Source: Deltaproteobacteria bacterium
GTDB lineage: Bacteria; Myxococcota; Polyangia; Polyangiales; B10-G4
Direction of reading: 5' to 3'
NCBI GenBank assembly: GCA_019312705.1
Contig: JAFDCW010000069.1
Span: 1 to 10,515, forward strand
Length of the DNA: 10,515 bases
In this document: positions 2 through 10,515 of the stretch, in pieces
How positions within the stretch are numbered: position 1 is the stretch's first letter
Layout of the letters: each line of letters starts with the position of its first letter
The notes under the pieces: model-generated
Databases searched by the model: none
The model's input: the letters and a program-made list of their open reading frames with translations, nothing else
Told to the model about the DNA's origin: nothing
Made by a program: the position numbers and the translations under genes

Positions 2-1273
2 ACCCATATCGACCTTTCCGGGGCCGGGGTCGGCGTTCTCGACGATCGGGAGGTGAGCGTGCGGGGGCTCTTCGGTGGCGAAACCGCGGCCGTCGAGGTG
101 GTCCATCGCTCCCGTCACCACGCAAAAGCCGTCGCCCGGGTGGTCGAGCTGCGCACGGCGCACCCGGCGCGTCGCGTCGCCCCCTGCGCCAACCACGAAT
201 CTCTCGCCGATGGGCGCAGTCGCTGCGGGGGGTGCGCGCTGATGGAGCTCACCGAACCTGCCCAACGCGCGCAGAAGGGCGTCATGCTCGAGGCCCTAGG
301 CCTCGATGTGTCCGACGTCATCGGCGATGCGGACTTCGGCTATCGGTGGTCGAGCAAGCGCGTGGCCTTCGCAGACAAGGGCCGCCTGCGCCTCGGCAGC
401 TGGGTCCGGGGCACGCACGAGGGGGCGACGATGCCCGGGTGCCGGGTCGATCACGCGCTCATCGCCGCCGCCGCCGACCAGGTCGAGCATGAAGCCCGGG
501 CATTGCGCATCGCGCCCTACGACGAAGCCAAAGGCAAAGGCGACCTCCGCTACGTGTGGTTGAAGACCGACGGTGAGTCGGTCTTGGTGACGCTCATCGT
601 CGCACATGAAGAAACCCGCGTAGGCGAACTCGCCGAGCAGCTGACCCTCGCCGCTGGTGTGGCCGTGAGCGTGCAGTCGGGGGCGGGCAATGCAATGCGC
701 GGCGCCAGAGAACCCGTGACCCTTCGTGGAGTCGCCCGCATCCCCGCAAACGTTGGCGACGTGCACGTAGACGTTGGCCCCATGGGCTTCCTCCAGCCGA
801 ACCCGAAGGCCATCGCCGAGGCCTACCGAGACTTGGTGGGTGACATCGATGGCGCGCCCGCTGTCGGCGCCGTCGCCTGGGACCTCTATGCCGGTGCCGG
901 GGTGACGACGGCGCTCCTCCGAGCGGGATTCGCTGAGGTCGTCGTGGCCGAGAGCTATCCCGAGAGCGCCGCTGCCCTCGGCATCGAGCCGGTTCGGGTC
1001 GAAGACTTCCTCGGGGCGCGGGCCGAGTCGGATGTGACCCCCGACCTCATCGTCGCCAATCCGCCCCGCAAAGGTCTCGGTGAAAAGGTCTGCGCTGCCC
1101 TCGTGGCTGCCGGGGCCCCGCGCCTGCACGTGATGTCCTGTGGCCCCGAGGGCCTCGCTCGGGACCTCGGCCGCCTCATCGACGGTGGCTACACCCTCTC
1201 GTCCCTCACCGCTTACGACACCCTGCCCCAGACGCCCCACGTCGAAGTGGTGGCGAAGCTCGTTCGCGGCTGA
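2..1273 (+). CDS. RNA 5-methyluridine methyltransferase, RlmD/TrmA family (5' end missing)
   Basis: Class I SAM-dependent enzyme expected to methylate C5 of a uridine in rRNA or tRNA. The reading frame is open to the left edge, and the bases before the GTG at 53 encode THIDLSGAGVGVLDDRE, which continues into a TRAM RNA-binding domain, so the true start lies outside the window and GTG 53 is internal. Four cysteines at codons 185, 224, 233 and 440 give a C-x12-C-x2-C-x68-C pattern like the [4Fe-4S] site of RlmD (RumA). Later motifs in order are FLQPNP, DLYAGAGVTT (SAM-binding loop), NPPRKGL (the family's DPPR loop, with N for D), and MSCGPEGLARDL with the nucleophilic cysteine at 1139-1141. HVEVV near the end carries the expected catalytic Glu. 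The stretch between SAM loop and NPPR is shorter than in RlmD. The family is secure; the target (U1939, U747 or tRNA U54) cannot be decided. Confidence 0.88.
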   Translation, partial: THIDLSGAGVGVLDDREVSVRGLFGGETAAVEVVHRSRHHAKAVARVVELRTAHPARRVAPCANHESLADGRSRCGGCALMELTEPAQRAQKGVMLEALGLDVSDVIGDADFGYRWSSKRVAFADKGRLRLGSWVRGTHEGATMPGCRVDHALIAAAADQVEHEARALRIAPYDEAKGKGDLRYVWLKTDGESVLVTLIVAHEETRVGELAEQLTLAAGVAVSVQSGAGNAMRGAREPVTLRGVARIPANVGDVHVDVGPMGFLQPNPKAIAEAYRDLVGDIDGAPAVGAVAWDLYAGAGVTTALLRAGFAEVVVAESYPESAAALGIEPVRVEDFLGARAESDVTPDLIVANPPRKGLGEKVCAALVAAGAPRLHVMSCGPEGLARDLGRLIDGGYTLSSLTAYDTLPQTPHVEVVAKLVRG

Positions 1274-2408: not shown

Positions 2409-3431
2409 TCAGCGGTGCTGGGCGGCGATGCGCTCGACTCGTTCGAGCAACTCCGGCTGGAAGAGGCGCCCGCGGAGGCTTTGGCGAGTGCGCTCCCCTA
2501 TCGCCTGCCACTCGGCGCGGTGAGCGCTGGCGTCGACCGGCGTCATACCGCGCTCGATGAGGGTCGCGTACGCCCGATCGTCCAAAGTGCGCACCGCTTG
2601 CTGCACTGCGCGTTCGGACTCCCGGGCCGTCTGCATGAGGGCGGTCTGGATGTCCGCCGGGAACGCGTCGAAGACCGACTTCCGCATGACCGTCGCGCCG
2701 ACGACGATGCCCGTCGGATGGGCTGAGACGAAGCGTGCGTGGTTGAACCATTGCAGCCCGACCGCGGCGATGGCACTCGCCGGGAAGGTGTCGATGCGCC
2801 CCGTCGACAGGCCTCCGAGGACCTCGCCAATGCCGAGAGGCACTCCCGTGACCCCCATCGCGCGCAGCGTCGCGACGAAGATCGGGTTGTCGCGCCACAC
2901 CCAGACGCGAGCGGAGCGCATGTCCCGGGGCCTCATGATGCGCCGGTCTGAGAAGAGGCGCACGCGGCCCGCGTCGCCCCAACCGAGCAATTTGAAGCCC
3001 GCGTCTTCGAACTGCTGGGCCAGCTCGGGGGCGAGGGCGGTACGCACGGCATCGAGCTGGGCGTAGTTCTCGATCACCCCGGGAGCCGAGAGCACCATGG
3101 CCTCGCGCACGATCATGCCGAGGCCGGTCGTGGTGACCGATGCGGCGTCGAGTTGGTTGTTGCGCATCTTGCGCACCACCGACCGCTCGCCGCCCGCGAC
3201 GCCCCCGTAGTAGACGTGCAGCCGGAGCCGTCCCCCGGTTCTGTCCGAGAGCCGACGCTGGAAGCGCGCAAATGTCCGCTGCATCGCCGTGCCCCGGGGC
3301 GCGAGGGTCGCGAGGCGAATCGTGTAGACGTCCTGGGCCTGGGCGTTGCCGTGCGCCGATGTGGGTAGCGCCTCGGGGAGGGCGACCAGGACGAGGGCCA
3401 GGCATGGCACGAGGAATAGGGCGCGTCTCAC
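2409..3431 (-). CDS. TRAP-type substrate-binding protein, DctP family
   Basis: Periplasmic solute receptor of 340 residues starting at GTG 3431. A hydrophobic signal peptide (about residues 1-31, basic MRR then an Ala/Leu/Val core) leads into YTIRLATLAPRGTAMQ, the usual first strand of DctP proteins. Later family features are the GGERSVVRKMRNNQLDAASVTTTG region, the DMRSARVWVWRDNP segment whose Arg is the likely carboxylate-contacting residue, and PLGIGEVLGGLSTGRIDTF, the equivalent of the PLPFSELYTALQTGVVDG block. TRAP transporters import organic acids with DctQ/DctM membrane partners; neither is in the window, so the receptor is either an orphan or its partners lie elsewhere. The ligand cannot be predicted. 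It reads into the HETGH lipoprotein gene and is divergent from the beta-propeller lipoprotein, with a 59-base gap that must hold both sets of start signals. Confidence 0.88.
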   Translation of the reverse strand: MRRALFLVPCLALVLVALPEALPTSAHGNAQAQDVYTIRLATLAPRGTAMQRTFARFQRRLSDRTGGRLRLHVYYGGVAGGERSVVRKMRNNQLDAASVTTTGLGMIVREAMVLSAPGVIENYAQLDAVRTALAPELAQQFEDAGFKLLGWGDAGRVRLFSDRRIMRPRDMRSARVWVWRDNPIFVATLRAMGVTGVPLGIGEVLGGLSTGRIDTFPASAIAAVGLQWFNHARFVSAHPTGIVVGATVMRKSVFDAFPADIQTALMQTARESERAVQQAVRTLDDRAYATLIERGMTPVDASAHRAEWQAIGERTRQSLRGRLFQPELLERVERIAAQHR

Positions 3432-5151: not shown

Positions 5152-5349
5152 ATGCCTAAGATGAAGACAAACCGCGCTGCGGCCAAGCGCCTCCGGGTCA
5201 CCGGAAGCGGGCGTGTGCGCCGGGCGAAGGCTGGCAAGAGCCATCTGATGCGCGGCAAGTCCGCCCGTCGGCTCCGCCGACTCGAGAAGAACGACATGGT
5301 CGACAAGTCGGATCAGAAGCGCGTCAAGCGCCTGATCCCCTACATGTGA
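5152..5349 (+). CDS. rpmI: 50S ribosomal protein L35
   Basis: Small basic protein of the large ribosomal subunit, 65 residues, the normal length. It begins MPKMKTNRAAAKR, the standard L35 N-terminus, and has the conserved KAGKSHLMRGKS region. ATG 5152 is chosen because AGGA (5142-5145) lies 6 bases upstream and because the longer open frame to 5056 encodes unrelated sequence over the promoter. rplT follows after 8 bases. In many bacteria infC comes directly before rpmI; here it does not, and rpmI has its own promoter. Confidence 0.97.
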   Translation: MPKMKTNRAAAKRLRVTGSGRVRRAKAGKSHLMRGKSARRLRRLEKNDMVDKSDQKRVKRLIPYM

Positions 5350-5357
5350 GGTAAGCC

Positions 5358-5702
5358 ATGCCCCGCGCAAAAAGAGGCTTTAAGGCCCGTCGCCGTCGTA
5401 ATCGCATCATGAAGCACGCCCGGGGCTATTACGGCGCCCGTGGACGTACCTTCGCCAACGCCATCGAGCAGGTTCACAACGGCTGGGAAGACGCCTATGC
5501 CGGCCGTCGCCGCAAGAAGCGTGAGTATCGCCGTCTGTGGATCGTGCGCATCAACGCCGCGGCCCGTCTGCATGGGCTGAGCTACTCGAAGCTCATCTTC
5601 AAACTCAAGAACGCCAGCATCGGTCTCGACCGTAAGGTGCTCGCGGACCTCGCCCTCAGCGACCCCGGCGGCTTCAAGGCTGTCGTCGACGCTACCGCTT
5701 AG
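5358..5702 (+). CDS. rplT: 50S ribosomal protein L20
   Basis: Large-subunit assembly protein, 114 residues (typical about 117). It starts MPRAKRGFKARRRRNRI, continues with the conserved ARGYYGARGRTF and YRRLWIVRINAAARLHGLSYSK blocks, and ends with the L20 globular domain. GAGG overlapping the rpmI stop serves as Shine-Dalgarno, which suggests translational coupling. In Escherichia coli and Bacillus, L20 represses its own operon by binding leader RNA. The short leader before rpmI could do this, but I cannot recognise a binding site in it. pheS begins 24 bases downstream. Confidence 0.97.
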   Translation: MPRAKRGFKARRRRNRIMKHARGYYGARGRTFANAIEQVHNGWEDAYAGRRRKKREYRRLWIVRINAAARLHGLSYSKLIFKLKNASIGLDRKVLADLALSDPGGFKAVVDATA

Positions 5703-5713
5703 TCCCCTTCAAT

Positions 5714-5720
5714 GGAGAGG
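5714..5720 (+). promoter_or_regulatory. Ribosome binding site that sets the pheS start
   Basis: GGAGAGG lies 6 bases before ATG 5727. The earlier in-frame ATG at 5712 overlaps this site and has only a pyrimidine-rich sequence upstream, so translation most likely begins at 5727. Confidence 0.7.
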
Positions 5721-5726
5721 CCGTCG

Positions 5727-6806
5727 ATGACGGACACCGACGCGGTCACCCGGTTCGAAGCGGGCCTTGCCGACGTGCGCGAGGCCTTCGGGTCTGCGTT
5801 CGGTGAGGCGACGGACGAGCAATCGCTCCGCGCCGCAAACGCGAAGCTCACGGGCCCCGAGGGCACGCTCACGAAGCTGATGAAGCTCATGCGCGAGGTT
5901 CCCGGGGACCGTCGTCGTGAGTTCGGCCAGGCGGCCAACGCCCTCAAAGAGGAAGTGGCCGCCGCCTTCGACGGGGCGCTGCTCGCCCTGGCCCAGGCCG
6001 AGCGGGAGGCGGAACTCGCCGCGCCGCACATCGACGTGAGCCTACCCGGGCGGCGCCCGAAGCCCGGGCGTCTGCACCCGATCACTCGGGTCACCATCGA
6101 GCTCGTCGACATCTTCACGGCCCTCGGCTTCGACGTCGCCCACGGTCCGGAGATCGACCTCTACGAATACAACTTCGACAAGCTCGGTTTCCCGCCGGAC
6201 CATCCAGCGACGGACATGCAGGACAGCTTCTTCGTGAAGAGCGATGGAGCCCGCAGCATGCTGCGCACGCACACCTCGACCATTCAGGTGCGCGAGATGT
6301 TGAAGCGTAAGCCGCCCTTGGCGATCGTCGCCCCCGGTGCGGTCTACCGCCGCGACGACGACATCACCCACTCGCCGATGTTCTTTCAGATCGAGGGGCT
6401 GCTCGTCGACGAGAAGGTGAGCTTCGCCGACCTCAAGGGCGTGCTCACCCGGTTTGCTCAGCGCCTCTTCGGCCCGGACGTTGGCGTCCGCGGGCGGCCC
6501 AGCTACTTCCCCTTCGTCGAGCCCGGCGCCGAGATCGACATCTCCTGCGTCTTCTGCAAACCCTGGGAGGGCGATGCCGCCCGGACGGCAGCCTGCCGCG
6601 TATGCAAGGGCACGGGGTGGCTCGAGATCTTGGGTTGCGGGATGGTTCATCCCGTCGTCTTCGAGTCCGTCGGCTACGACCCCGAGAAATACACCGGCTT
6701 CGCTTTCGGTCTCGGTATCGACCGCATCGCCATGCTGAAGTACGGCATCAGCGACATCCGCATGCTCTACGAGAACGACGCTCGGTTCTTGGAGCAGATC
6801 GGATGA
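5727..6806 (+). CDS. pheS: Phenylalanyl-tRNA synthetase alpha chain
   Basis: Catalytic subunit of the alpha2-beta2 class II synthetase that charges tRNA-Phe; 359 residues from ATG 5727. Residues 1-100 form the N-terminal helical coiled-coil arm. Class II motif 1 lies around residues 116-143 (LHPITRVTIELVDIF to HGPEIDL). Motif 2 covers RTHTSTIQVR and PGAVYRRDDDITHSPMFFQIEG (about 180-225), and motif 3 GFAFGLGIDRIAMLKYGI (324-341). Between the PSYFPFVEPGAEIDIS and GTGWLEILGCGMVHP blocks is an insert with C274-x2-C277-x12-C290-x2-C293 (bases 6546-6605) that looks like a zinc knuckle. Escherichia coli PheS has only a few residues there; Cys-containing versions are known in Deltaproteobacteria and others, usually with a shorter spacer. 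pheT follows after 49 bases. Confidence 0.97.
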   Translation: MTDTDAVTRFEAGLADVREAFGSAFGEATDEQSLRAANAKLTGPEGTLTKLMKLMREVPGDRRREFGQAANALKEEVAAAFDGALLALAQAEREAELAAPHIDVSLPGRRPKPGRLHPITRVTIELVDIFTALGFDVAHGPEIDLYEYNFDKLGFPPDHPATDMQDSFFVKSDGARSMLRTHTSTIQVREMLKRKPPLAIVAPGAVYRRDDDITHSPMFFQIEGLLVDEKVSFADLKGVLTRFAQRLFGPDVGVRGRPSYFPFVEPGAEIDISCVFCKPWEGDAARTAACRVCKGTGWLEILGCGMVHPVVFESVGYDPEKYTGFAFGLGIDRIAMLKYGISDIRMLYENDARFLEQIG

Positions 6807-6855
6807 CCCGCCTTCCGGAAGAGACCCCAGGAGAGACCCGAGGAGAGAGAGTCTG

Positions 6856-9276
6856 ATGCTCGCGTCGTACAAATGGCTCGTCGAGCTCACCGGAGTCTCC
6901 GCCTCGCCGCGGGAAGTCGCAGACAAGCTCACCGGCGGCGGCCTCGAGGTCGAGGCGTTCGAGACCCGGGGCGAAGGCCTCGACTCGGTCGTCATCGCCG
7001 AGGTGCGGTCCAAGACCAAGGTTCCCGACAAAGACAAGCTCAGCCACGTCGTCGTCTTCGATGGCGAGGGCGAGGTCGACGTCATCTGCGGGGCAGCGAA
7101 CGTGCCGGACCCGGGAGGGCGTGTGCTCTTCGCCCGCGTCGGCAGCGTGCTCCCGAACGGCATGGAGATAGGCGAGCGCAAGCTCGGCGGCGTGCTCTCC
7201 CGAGGCATGATCTGCTCCGAAGATGAGCTCGAGATCGGAACCGGGTCGGAGGGCATCTTCGTCGTTCCGGCCGATATCGAGGCCGCTCCGGGCACAAGCA
7301 TCGCCGACGCCCTGGATCTGCGCGATACCATCTTCGAGCTGGGCCTCACGCCCAACCGCCCCGACGGGCTCGGCCACATCGGCCTCGCCCGGGACGTCGC
7401 CGTGCACTTCGGCCTGAGGTTCACGCCCCCGGCTCCGCCGGAGCCCGTGCGCCGGGCGGACGGTGAACTCGGTGTTTCGATCGAAATCGCCGACGCCGAA
7501 CGATGCCCACGCTACGGCGCGGGATTGGTGCGCGGTGTCACCCTCGGGCCGTCTCCCTTCTGGCTCCGGTATCGCCTGCACTGCCTCGGCCTCCGTGCGA
7601 TTCACAATGTCGTCGACGCGACGAACTACGTGCTCCTCGAGCACGGCCACCCGACTCACGCCTTCGACTTGGCTTCGGTTCGCAAACAAGCGATCGTCGT
7701 GCGCCTCGCGACCGACGGCGAGAAGATGACCACCCTCGACGAAGTCGAGCGCACACTCACCGCCGACGACCTCTTGATCTGCGACGGGGAAGGGCCCGTG
7801 GCCGTCGCCGGAGTGATGGGCGGGGCCAACTCGGAGATCGGCGACGGGACGAACGACGTGCTCGTCGAGTGCGCCTATTTCGCTCCGCGGTCAGTTCGTC
7901 GCACCGGGCGCCGCCTGGGGCTGCACACCGACGCGAGCCACCGCTTCGAGCGCGGCGTCGACCCGAACGGCGTGCCGCGGGTCCTGGCGCGCACGACGCA
8001 GCTGATCGCCGACCTCGCCGGCGGCACCGTCATCGGTGCTGGGGTGGACGAGAACGTGCTGGCCATCGCGCCTCCGGTCATCGACTTCCGCCTCGACCGC
8101 TGCGATGCGTTGCTCGGCTTCGAGACCGAGCCCGCGGAAGCTGTGCGCATCTTCGAAGGGCTCGGCTTTTCGGTCGAGAAGACGGGGGAGCGGACCTTCC
8201 GCGTGACCGTGCCGACGTTCCGGCCGGACATCAGCCGCGAGGTCGACCTCACCGAGGAAGTGCTCCGTTTTACGGGCTTTTCCCTCATTCCGACGACGAT
8301 TCCTCACGTGCGCCCGTCGGCGGACGGCACGCCCCTCGAAGTGCGCTTCGAACGCCTCACCCGGGGCATCGCGGCCATCGCGGGCCTCTACGAGGCCGTC
8401 ACCTATGCCTTCGTCTCACCCCCCGAGCTCGCCGCGGCCCGGGTTCCGGAAGCTTCGGTAGTCCTCGAGAACCCTCTGTCCGAAGACCGGTCGGTGATGC
8501 GCACGTCGTTGCTCCCGGGCCTCGCGGCGGCCGCCGGGCGTGCCCTTCGTCGGCAGGTCCAGCGCGTCTCCCTCTTCGAAGTCGGCAATACATTCACGGC
8601 CACGGACGGTGACCTTCCGCGCGAACACCAATCCCTCGCGTTCATGCTCGCGGGGCCCCGTGAGGCGTGGATCGGTGACGGCGAGGCCTTCGATTTCTAC
8701 GACGGCAAGGGCTTCATCGAGACCATCGTCGGTCCCCTGTGTCTCAGCGCCCCGGTGTTCTCCATCGACGATTGACTCTCCGAAACCGCACCTTGGTTTC
8801 ACCCCCGGCGCCGCGCTGCAGTCTCCGTGCAGATCGACGGAGAGGACGTTGCACTGGGCTCCCTCGGGGAGCTGCACCCCGACGTCGCCGAGGCCCTCGA
8901 CCTCGACACCCGAGCCATCTATGCCGAGCTCTCGGTCGCCGCGCTCTTCCGCGCGCGGCAGGCGGTGGGTGACCCCCAGGCGAGCGTATTGCCGCGCTTC
9001 CCCGCCGTGAACCGCGACATCGCGATGGAGCTCGACGAAGAACACGCGGCGGGCGCTGTCGCCGACGCGATTCGTCAGGCCGGCGGCGATCTCGTGGAGC
9101 AGGTCCGACTCTTCGACCTCTATCGCGGTGAGCAGGTCGCAGCGGGCAAGAAGAGCCTCGCCTTCCGCGTTACGTACCGAGATCCGGCCGCGACACTGAC
9201 CGACAAGAAGGTCGACAAGGCTCACGCCAAGGCGGCCAAGGCGATGAAGACGCAATTTACGGCCACGGTCCGCTGA
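6856..9276 (+). CDS. pheT: Phenylalanyl-tRNA synthetase beta chain, interrupted by an in-frame TGA
   Basis: Structural and editing subunit paired with PheS. ATG 6856 follows a purine-rich AGGAGAGAGA (6841-6850). Domains: N-terminal OB-fold tRNA-binding region (about 40-150, with VICGAANV and SRGMICSEDEL); B3/B4 editing domain (210-395, NVVDATNYVLLEHGHPTHAFD); B5 domain (405-475, PTFRPDISREVDLTEEVLR); catalytic-like core (480-690, NPLSEDRSVMRTSLLPGL); FDX-ACB anticodon-binding domain (from about 712, LPRFPAVNRDIA to the end). Codon 640 is TGA (8773-8775), after FDFYDGKGF...SIDD. The same frame resumes with LSETAPWFHPRRRAAVSV and LGELHPDVAEALDL, both PheT-like. Read through, the product is about 806 residues against 795 in Escherichia coli. 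Stopping at the TGA would remove part of the core and the whole FDX-ACB domain. The gene is normally essential and single-copy. A simple pipeline would call 6856-8775 and 8827-9276 as two ORFs. Confidence 0.9.
8773..8800 (+). other. In-frame stop codon plus adjacent hairpin inside pheT
   Basis: TGA (8773-8775) followed by C is in frame with pheT. After a 6-base spacer, GAAACC (8782-8787) and GGTTTC (8795-8800) form a perfect 6-bp stem around a 7-base loop, GCACCTT. A hairpin at this distance could stimulate readthrough, or could cause polymerase or sequencing errors. The pairing is direct; a function is not shown. Confidence 0.45.
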
Positions 9277-9280
9277 TTTT

Positions 9281-9304
9281 TCGAGGGCTGGTGTAAGCCC
9301 TTGA
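9281..9304 (+). promoter_or_regulatory. Hairpin between pheT and ihfA
   Basis: TCGAGGGCT (9281-9289) pairs with AGCCCTTGA (9296-9304) over 9 bp with one G-T, around a 6-base loop GGTGTA. It begins 5 bases after the pheT stop. No T-tract follows it, although TTTTT precedes it. It may be a weak terminator, an attenuator or an mRNA-stabilising stem separating the synthetase genes from ihfA. Confidence 0.4.
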
Positions 9305-9329
9305 GATCAGCACCGAATCATGGTTCGAT
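9301..9329 (+). promoter_or_regulatory. Weak candidate promoter for ihfA
   Basis: TTGAGA (9301-9306) matches the -35 consensus at five of six bases. TTCGAT (9324-9329), 17 bases later, is a poor -10. The -35 overlaps the right arm of the hairpin. It is offered only because the 78-base gap before ihfA is the longest on the + strand within the cluster. Confidence 0.22.
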
Positions 9330-9354
9330 GCAGCACGTTTTGGGAGGGGTATCG

Positions 9355-9699
9355 ATGACAAAAGCCGAAATCATCGACGCTGTTTACGAGAAGGTCGGAG
9401 GGTTCTCCAAGAAGGAGGCCGCCGAGATCGTAGAGGCGGTTTTCGACACGATGAAAGAGGTTCTCGCCGACGGCGAGAAGATCAAGATTTCCGGCTTCGG
9501 CAACTTCGTCGTGCGCGCCAAGAAGGAGCGTATCGGTCGCAACCCGCAGACCGGTTCGCCGATTCCCATCAGCGCGCGCAAGGTGCTGACCTTCAAGCCC
9601 AGCCAGGTGCTCAAGGGCGCCCTCAATCCCCACAAAGAAGAAGCCAAGCGCGCCGCCACCCCCGACGCCGGCGCGCCGGCCTCTGGTGACGAGGCCTGA
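9355..9699 (+). CDS. ihfA: Integration host factor alpha subunit
   Basis: DNA-bending HU/IHF-family protein, 114 residues. It starts MTKAEIIDAVYEKVGGFSKKEA and has the family blocks KISGFGNFVVRAKKERIGRNPQTGSPIPISARKVLTF in order. Pro64 in the GRNPQTG tip is the residue that intercalates between base pairs. ATG 9355 is chosen because GGGAGGGG (9342-9349) is a strong Shine-Dalgarno 5 bases upstream; the open frame from 9301 adds unrelated residues. The alpha type, not HU, is supported by position after pheST. Residues 92-114 are an Ala/Pro/Lys-rich tail beyond the usual IHF-alpha end near residue 99. merR begins 14 bases after the stop, so the two are probably co-transcribed. Confidence 0.93.
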   Translation: MTKAEIIDAVYEKVGGFSKKEAAEIVEAVFDTMKEVLADGEKIKISGFGNFVVRAKKERIGRNPQTGSPIPISARKVLTFKPSQVLKGALNPHKEEAKRAATPDAGAPASGDEA

Positions 9700-9713
9700 G
9701 GCCGAAGGACTCC

Positions 9714-10166
9714 GTGGCGGCCCCCCTCCCGGATAAGCTCTTCTTCAAGATCGGCGAGGTCGCTCGCATTGTGGGCGTGAAGACCCACGTGCTTCGCTAT
9801 TGGGAGACCGAGTTTTCCCAGCTGCGTCCGATGAAGACGCGGGGCAGCCATCGTCAGTATCGGCGCCGCGACGTCGAGCTCGCGGTTCAGATCAAGCGCT
9901 TGCTGCACGACCAAGGCTTCACCATCCCCGGGGCACGGCGGCGCCTCAAAGAGCTGGGGCAGGCGTCGGTCAAGAGCGAGGCCGACCCCGCAGCGGCTCG
10001 CGAGATGGCCCTCAAGACCGAGCTCCTCGGCGTCCGGGAGACCCTCCTCGGCCTCCTCGGCGAGCTCGACGCGATTGCTCAGGAGCCGGCTCCGGCGCCC
10101 CAGGCGGTGCGGGTTGAGAAGGTTACCGCCTCGGTTCCCGTTGGCGTCCGGCACCGCCGGAGCTGA
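9714..10166 (+). CDS. MerR-family transcriptional regulator
   Basis: Small DNA-binding regulator of 150 residues from GTG 9714, with GAAGGA (9704-9709) 4 bases upstream. Residues 10-78 are a MerR winged helix-turn-helix: FFKIGEVARIVGVKTHVLRYWE, then LRPMKTRGSHRQYRRRDVE and the HDQGFTIPGARRRL helix. A short helical stretch (about 95-122) could serve as the dimerising coiled coil, followed by a Pro/Ala/Val-rich tail. There is no large effector domain and no cysteine anywhere, so it cannot be a Cys-ligated metal or redox sensor like MerR or SoxR. A MerR gene directly after ihfA is a recurring arrangement in Deltaproteobacteria; its target is unknown to me. Confidence 0.92.
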   Translation: MAAPLPDKLFFKIGEVARIVGVKTHVLRYWETEFSQLRPMKTRGSHRQYRRRDVELAVQIKRLLHDQGFTIPGARRRLKELGQASVKSEADPAAAREMALKTELLGVRETLLGLLGELDAIAQEPAPAPQAVRVEKVTASVPVGVRHRRS

Positions 10167-10182
10167 GCGGGGCTGAGCGGGG
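10163..10182 (+). repeat. Two tandem copies of a 10-bp unit
   Basis: CTGAGCGGGG occurs at 10163-10172 and again at 10173-10182. The first copy includes the merR stop codon. Probably local slippage. Confidence 0.5.
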
Positions 10183-10203
10183 GGCGTTTAGGTGCGCGTT
10201 CGC

Positions 10204-10359
10204 CGTTGGCGTTGGCGTTCGCGTTGGCGTTTCCGTTCGCGTTTCCGTTCGCGTTTCCGTTTCCGTTCCCGTCGCCGTCTCCGTTCCCGTTCCCGTTCCC
10301 GTTCCCGTCTCCGTTCCCGTTCCCGTCTCCGTCTCCGTTCCCGTTCCCGTCTCCGTTCC
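10204..10359 (+). repeat. Hexanucleotide tandem array, 26 in-phase units
   Basis: Every sixth base from 10204 begins CGT, without a single phase slip, for 156 bp. By direct count the units are CGTTCC 10, CGTCTC 5, CGTTTC 4, CGTTGG 3, CGTTCG 3 and CGTCGC 1. CGTTGG occurs only at the left, CGTTTC and CGTTCG in the left half, and CGTTCC and CGTCTC only in the right half. One more CGTTCG at 10197-10202 is out of phase by one base. No unit creates a stop in any frame, so long ORFs across it mean nothing. It lies between merR and the right-edge region. Confidence 0.93.
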
Positions 10360-10515
10360 CGTGTAACGGCTCTTCTCCGCTTCGCTCCGAACTCGCGTGC
10401 CATTGCGAGACGCGCGCATTGTTGCTCCTTCGCTCGGGGCGCCTGGACGGTGCCACCGTGCTCGACCGAGTAAAGGCTCGGCCCGCCGAGGCGGCGGACG
10501 CGCCCGGCGAGCGCC
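10360..10515. other. Right-edge region without a supportable gene
   Basis: After the hexamer array come 156 bases with no recognised protein or RNA. Two frames from GTG 10397 and GTG 10458 (the latter reading VLDRVKARPAEAADAPGER) stay open to the edge and could be the start of a gene, but neither has a clear Shine-Dalgarno or recognisable residues. Small inverted repeats are CCGAG/CTCGG (10466-10470 with 10477-10481) and CCGCC/GGCGG (10484-10488 with 10491-10495). Confidence 0.4.

What the first reader, a model, noticed from the sequence alone, without database searches (positions are those of the whole stretch)
8773..8775. Single in-frame TGA in an otherwise full-length pheT
Seen: the pheT frame runs from 6856 to 9276 with one internal stop at codon 640, and recognisable PheT sequence (PWFHP...RAAVSV, LGELHPDV, FDX-ACB domain) continues in the same frame. 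Known: PheT is essential and normally single-copy, and the FDX-ACB domain contacts tRNA-Phe. Inference: this is a sequencing or assembly error, a real nonsense mutation covered by a second copy or suppressor, a gene split into two polypeptides, or readthrough. A pair of compensating frameshifts is also possible: the neighbouring frame reads DSPKPHLGFTPGAALQ across this stretch. There is no good Shine-Dalgarno before GTG 8827, which argues against a deliberate split.
Basis: partly seen in the sequence, partly recalled or inferred. Interest (0 to 1): 0.7.

Follow-up and report, generated by a model that had tools for sequence, protein, structure and literature searches.

The report
Stray stop codon in tRNA-synthetase gene
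An otherwise ordinary bacterial gene for half of the phenylalanine tRNA-charging enzyme carries one stop codon that its closest relative lacks; it is most likely an error in the assembled sequence or a very recent mutation, not a new mechanism.

Summary
In detail: TGA at 8773-8775 is codon 640 of the pheT frame 6856-9276, and PheT sequence continues in the same frame on both sides. A close relative (L001, 91.6% DNA identity over 5.3 kb, same gene order) has an uninterrupted 806-residue PheT with a glutamate codon there and no gap in pheT. The site is a variable loop inside the catalytic-like module, not a domain border; in 119 aligned relatives no Cys stands there. A chain restarted at GTG 8827 would lose the His-Pro kept in 119 of 119. 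TGA also ends 5 of the 6 genes examined, pheT among them, so TGA is not sense here. The near relative's genome has no SelB or tRNA-Sec above cut-off and no Rfam match overlies the site. Substitution patterns on both sides of the stop are alike, so the 3' part shows no decay. I favour a sequencing, assembly or strain-mixture error, with a very recent nonsense mutation as the main rival. The window's genome and reads are not held, so the two cannot be separated here. Low interest.

The parts
6856..8775 (+). 5' part of pheT (639 codons + TGA): tRNA-binding, B3/4, B5 and most of the catalytic-like module
   Evidence: Pfam tRNA_bind, B3_4, B5, tRNA_synthFbeta (profile 1-159 of 214) and TIGR00472 at 564.1 bits
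8773..8775 (+). in-frame TGA, codon 640
   Evidence: close relative L001 has a Glu codon, differing at all three positions
8776..9276 (+). 3' part of pheT in the same frame: end of the catalytic-like module and FDX-ACB (B8) anticodon-binding domain, ending in TGA
   Evidence: PF17759 profile 168-213, PF03147 1-94, TIGR00472 645-798
8827..8829 (+). first in-frame start-type codon (GTG) after the stop; a Val codon in L001 as well
   Evidence: same valine in the L001 translation
5712..6806 (+). pheS, intact
   Evidence: TIGR00468 305.7 bits over cut-off 237.45; L001 copy collinear, 39 of 1095 bases differ
9355..9699 (+). HU/IHF-family gene, intact
   Evidence: PF00216; collinear in L001, 17 of 345 bases differ

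Best explanation
This is an ordinary bacterial pheT gene (PheRS beta subunit) in the gene order rpmI-rplT-pheS-pheT-HU/IHF-MerR. The TGA most likely is not in the gene of the living population: it is a consensus error of the contig (sequencing error at low coverage, or mis-joined strain variants) in a hypervariable loop codon. Shown: the gene is otherwise full length, in frame and conserved, and the near relative is uninterrupted. Inferred: that the stop is an error and not a mutation.
For: L001 (91.6% over 5304 aligned bases) has an open frame of the same length and no gap in pheT. Of the best 120 PheT homologues listed (of 6200 found with the 5' piece), 119 carry FDX-ACB in the same chain by their precomputed domains and one (P0095, 703 aa) does not. 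In 96 genomes around L001 (its own included), 94 match; by eye all but three of these (G007, G079, G096) have a match over residue 640, and none of the pheT matches has an internal stop; the one row with stops is a weak match elsewhere in G089 (E 3.1e-4). The nonsynonymous share of codon differences to L001 is alike before the stop (34 of 141) and after it (14 of 60). Of 14 amino-acid differences after the stop, outgroups place 3 on the window's side, 4 on L001's side and 7 are unclear; before it 9, 7 and 18 of 34. So the 3' part shows no decay in the window's lineage. All three bases of codon 640 and the base before it differ from L001, the only 4-base mismatch run in pheT; 2 of 807 codons differ at all three positions, about 0.2 expected if positions varied independently (the expectation is my arithmetic). 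PheT is a universal essential enzyme (established knowledge), so a real null would be lethal without a second copy or suppression. Broken pheT genes also turn up singly in assemblies of relatives: frameshifts in G050 (near residues 440-463) and G143 (near 422-445).
Against: No reads or coverage could be seen, so there is no direct sign of error. The rest of the contig looks clean: rplT, pheS, HU/IHF and merR are intact and gapless against L001; within genes only the contig-edge gap and a one-base gap at the rpmI stop codon appear. Codon 640 is a fast-varying position (conservation rank 193 of 217 compared) and codons 640-680 differ from L001 more often than the 40 before (18 of 41 against 11 of 40), so a natural change there is easier than at an average codon. 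Leaky UGA readthrough is documented for bacteria in general.
Confidence: 0.62

Rival explanations
1. A real, very recent nonsense mutation carried by the sequenced cell line or strain. It survives through low-level UGA readthrough, a suppressor tRNA or a second pheT elsewhere, or belongs to cells that were dying.
For: In-frame stops under purifying selection are reported as widespread in bacterial genes (PMC7918605, abstract and passages). UGA is the leakiest stop, with readthrough of at least 10^-2 to 10^-3 quoted for Salmonella and E. coli (PMC4989110, passages). The following base is C, recalled as a weak UGA context in bacteria (no call). The 3' part shows no decay.
Against: No relative examined shares the stop (L001; pheT matches); PMC7918605 counted a stop only when two or more independent genomes shared it, to exclude sequencing errors. 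Readthrough near 1% would give very little of a universally needed enzyme (inference). No second copy is seen in the near relative.
Confidence: 0.3
2. A working split gene: beta subunit made as two polypeptides, 1-639 and one restarted at GTG 8827 (149 residues), that assemble.
For: The downstream ORF is long and holds a complete FDX-ACB domain. Other C-terminal PheT pieces are listed as separate proteins, some on long contigs, and 3 of the 15 checked begin near this place (648, 660 and 661 in L001 numbering).
Against: The stop cuts the catalytic-like module about 53 residues before its end, not at a domain border. Restart at 8827 loses residues 640-657 with the His-Pro kept in 119 of 119. No Shine-Dalgarno is seen before 8827, and the TTG overlapping the stop opens a different frame (by eye). 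The 15 separate C-terminal pieces begin anywhere from 549 to 712, not at one border. No sigma-70-like promoter was found in 8600-9400.
Confidence: 0.04
3. Recoding: TGA read as selenocysteine, or TGA reassigned to an amino acid in this organism.
For: Single in-frame TGA with homologous sequence on both sides.
Against: TGA terminates rpmI, pheS, pheT, HU/IHF and merR here (5 of 6 genes; rplT ends in TAG). No Cys at the column in 119 relatives. No Rfam hit over the site, and the downstream fold is no stronger than shuffles (z -0.15). In G001 SelB matches stay under the cut-off, and the only tRNA-Sec-like match (36.2 bits, gathering 47) lies at a tRNA-Ser(gct).
Confidence: 0.01

Closest known systems
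Bacterial PheRS beta subunit (PheT, TIGR00472)
   Same: Domain set through FDX-ACB, gene beside pheS, 806 codon positions exactly as in the nearest relative
   Different: One codon reads TGA
In-frame stop codons within conserved bacterial genes (as in PMC7918605)
   Same: Nonsense codon in a gene whose flanks look under purifying selection
   Different: Seen in one contig only; [quoted passage not shown]
   Same: An essential gene broken once in one assembly among intact relatives
   Different: Frameshifts, near residues 440-463 and 422-445

Membership tests
Bacterial PheT (TIGR00472) | Matches the equivalog model over its cut-off (402.65 bits) | tested here: met
   5' piece alone scores 564.1 bits; 3' piece adds model 645-798 at 119.1 bits
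Bacterial PheT (TIGR00472) | One uninterrupted chain through the catalytic-like module and FDX-ACB | tested here: not met
   TGA at codon 640 in the sequence as given
Selenoprotein | SECIS element at the TGA | tested here: not met
   No Rfam match in 8700-8900 at E up to 1; fold z -0.15
Selenoprotein | Cys in homologues at the TGA position | tested here: not met
   0 of 119 relatives
Selenoprotein | SelB and tRNA-Sec in the genome | tested here: inconclusive
   Not found above cut-off in the near relative G001, whose completeness is not told; the window's own genome is not held
Genome with TGA reassigned | TGA not used as terminator | tested here: not met
   5 of 6 genes end in TGA, pheT itself among them
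Naturally split gene | Relatives share the same gene boundary | tested here: not met
   Near relative intact; no internal stop in pheT matches of the 94 matching genomes of 96; separate C-terminal pieces start from 549 to 712, 3 of 15 near the site
Leaky nonsense codon with readthrough | Full-length product detected | not testable with these tools
   Needs proteomics or a reporter
Sequencing or assembly error | Reads disagree with the consensus at the site | not testable with these tools
   No reads held; no genome held

The most novel reading that the evidence does not exclude
The TGA is real and fixed in this population, and PheRS beta is made through regulated UGA readthrough in a weak UGA-C context. 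The supply of an essential tRNA synthetase would then be set by termination efficiency.
Probability: 0.03. Interest if true: 0.6.

Novelty: not a real feature. Interest (0 to 1): 0.08.

Why it matters
Mainly as a caution: a single in-frame stop in an essential gene of an uncultured bacterium should be checked against a close relative and the reads before a new translation mechanism is proposed. If the stop proved fixed and read through, it would be an unusual control of an essential enzyme.

Tried and rejected
Wide compensating frameshift (DSPKPHLG frame): rejected, because L001 is gapless and homologous in the original frame across the stretch. Selenocysteine and code change. Split gene. Second copy in the window's genome: could not be tested; G001 has one match. 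Short pheT open frames (8 rows under 750 residues by eye) were followed up: six are cut by contig edges (G028, G069, G082, G112, G204, G246) and two are frameshifts away from residue 640 (G050, G143).

Papers. 'Guaymas Basin' with the relative's isolate name: 0 papers. pheT with stop codon, pseudogene and essential gene: one paper, on planthopper endosymbionts, listing only. Metagenome-assembled genomes with premature stop codons and sequencing errors: 0 papers; listing only; PMC12007338, on gene-fragmenting errors in long-read assemblies, seen as title and abstract start; three papers listed, none used., meant to check the UGA-C context: 10 of 15 papers listed, none titled on bacteria, none read; the context remark is recalled. 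Searches gave PMC3275996, PMC4989110 and PMC7918605, of which I saw passages (and the abstract of PMC7918605). No structure was predicted.

Full report
Observation. The pheT frame 6856-9276 holds one internal stop, TGA at 8773-8775 (codon 640), and the frame continues to a TGA at 9274-9276. The 5' piece matches TIGR00472 at 564.1 bits (model 1-631). The 3' piece matches the rest of the model (645-798) and the whole FDX-ACB domain. The neighbours are rpmI, rplT, pheS, an HU/IHF gene and a MerR gene, all intact.

Close relative. A scan of genome contigs gave L001 (QMMC01000545.1, MAG 'Deltaproteobacteria bacterium isolate B10_G4'). It aligns to window 5225-10515 at 91.6%. Its pheT has 806 sense codons and no gap against the window. 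At codon 640 it has a Glu codon that differs from TGA at all three positions. With the base before, this is a run of four mismatches, the longest in pheT; of 202 runs 186 are single, 13 double, 2 triple and 1 quadruple. Two of 807 codons differ at all three positions. About 0.2 would be expected from the per-position totals 27, 25 and 170 if independent (my arithmetic). The block can be described as adjacent substitutions or as a one-base insertion and a one-base deletion close together. The data do not choose between them.

The site. In an alignment of the C-terminal parts of 119 relatives (120 listed; P0095, which lacks the FDX-ACB domain, was left out), the column holds Val (59), Ala (17), Leu (12), Thr (7), Ser (6), Asp, Gly and others, and no Cys. 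It ranks 193 of 217 in conservation (1 = most conserved). The four residues after it are gaps in 82 or 83 of 119, so it is a loop of variable length and the residue at the column depends on gap placement. The His-Pro at 649-650 is kept in 119 of 119. The loop lies inside PF17759, the catalytic-like module: profile 1-159 lies before the stop and 168-213 after it. PMC3275996 (passages) describes B8 as the domain that contacts the tRNA-Phe anticodon loop; a chain ended at residue 639 would lack it.

Is the 3' part decaying? Codon differences to L001 are 141 before the stop with 34 nonsynonymous, and 60 after it with 14 nonsynonymous (the stop codon left out). Using P0002-P0005 as outgroups, amino-acid changes after the stop fall 3 on the window's side, 4 on L001's side and 7 unclear; before it 9, 7 and 18. 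The numbers are small, but nothing suggests decay. This fits an error, a very recent mutation, or a product still made.

Base rate. In 96 genomes around L001 (its own included), 94 match PheT; by eye all but three of them (G007, G079, G096) have a match over residue 640. No pheT match has an internal stop; one weak match elsewhere in G089 (E 3.1e-4) has two TAG. A second search, with the 149 residues after GTG 8827, found matches in 261 of 290 genomes; the list of matches was cut short, and since that query begins after the stop only its open-frame column bears on the site. By eye eight listed rows have open frames under 750 residues. Six are cut by contig edges; G050 and G143 have frameshifts near residues 440-463 and 422-445. 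None breaks at 640. Additional rows per genome are, by eye, adjacent stretches of the same gene, contig-end pieces or weak matches, so no second full pheT was seen. G001 itself has one match.

Rivals. Recoding fails: TGA ends five of six genes here including pheT; no RNA family overlies the site; the fold downstream is ordinary (z -0.15); the near relative has no SelB over the cut-off and its only tRNA-Sec-like match lies at a tRNA-Ser(gct). A working split is unlikely: the stop is not at a domain border, the next start drops the invariant His-Pro, there is no sigma-70-like promoter in 8600-9400, and the separate C-terminal PheT pieces from other contigs start from 549 to 712 (15 pieces, those on contigs of 4 kb or more among the 119 foreign rows listed of 129 hits). 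Three of the 15 do start near the site (648, 660, 661), which is the one result that leans towards a boundary here. Leaky readthrough of a real mutation stays possible: in-frame stops under purifying selection are reported widely in bacteria (PMC7918605, abstract and passages) and UGA is quoted as the leakiest stop (PMC4989110, passages). That study accepted a stop only if two or more independent genomes shared it, a test this case does not pass.

Verdict. The sequence feature is as described, but it is best read as an error in the contig (0.62) or a very recent nonsense mutation (0.30). The window's genome and reads are not held, so direct proof is missing.

Noticed in passing
L095 (G050:C314:2900-5700) and L097 (G143:C221:600-3300): pheT of two unnamed relatives is broken by a frameshift, near residues 440-463 and 422-445, the two parts lying in different frames about 32 bases apart in each. 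Two breaks in nearly the same stretch may be chance or a hard-to-assemble spot.
   Followed up: partly
P0159, P0160, P0166, P0236: Short C-terminal PheT proteins predicted on contigs of 365-959 kb; they start at different places and may be broken or alternatively started pheT genes.
   Followed up: partly
P0121: The window's own 149-residue C-terminal piece stands for a cluster of two member sequences on one contig; whether a second assembly shows the same break could not be told.
   Followed up: no
window 10195-10362: Array of short C/G/T-rich repeats (periods 6 to 24) after the MerR gene; it gives long open frames on both strands that are probably not genes.
   Followed up: no
window 6820-6848: 2.4 copies of a 12-base repeat in the pheS-pheT gap, where the alignment to L001 has a 6-base gap.
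   Followed up: no
window 2-1273: Long open frame without a Pfam match at E 0.001; its NPPRKG motif recalls RNA methyltransferases (recalled, not tested).
   Followed up: no
window 2409-3431, minus strand: DctP-type TRAP transporter solute-binding protein.
   Followed up: no
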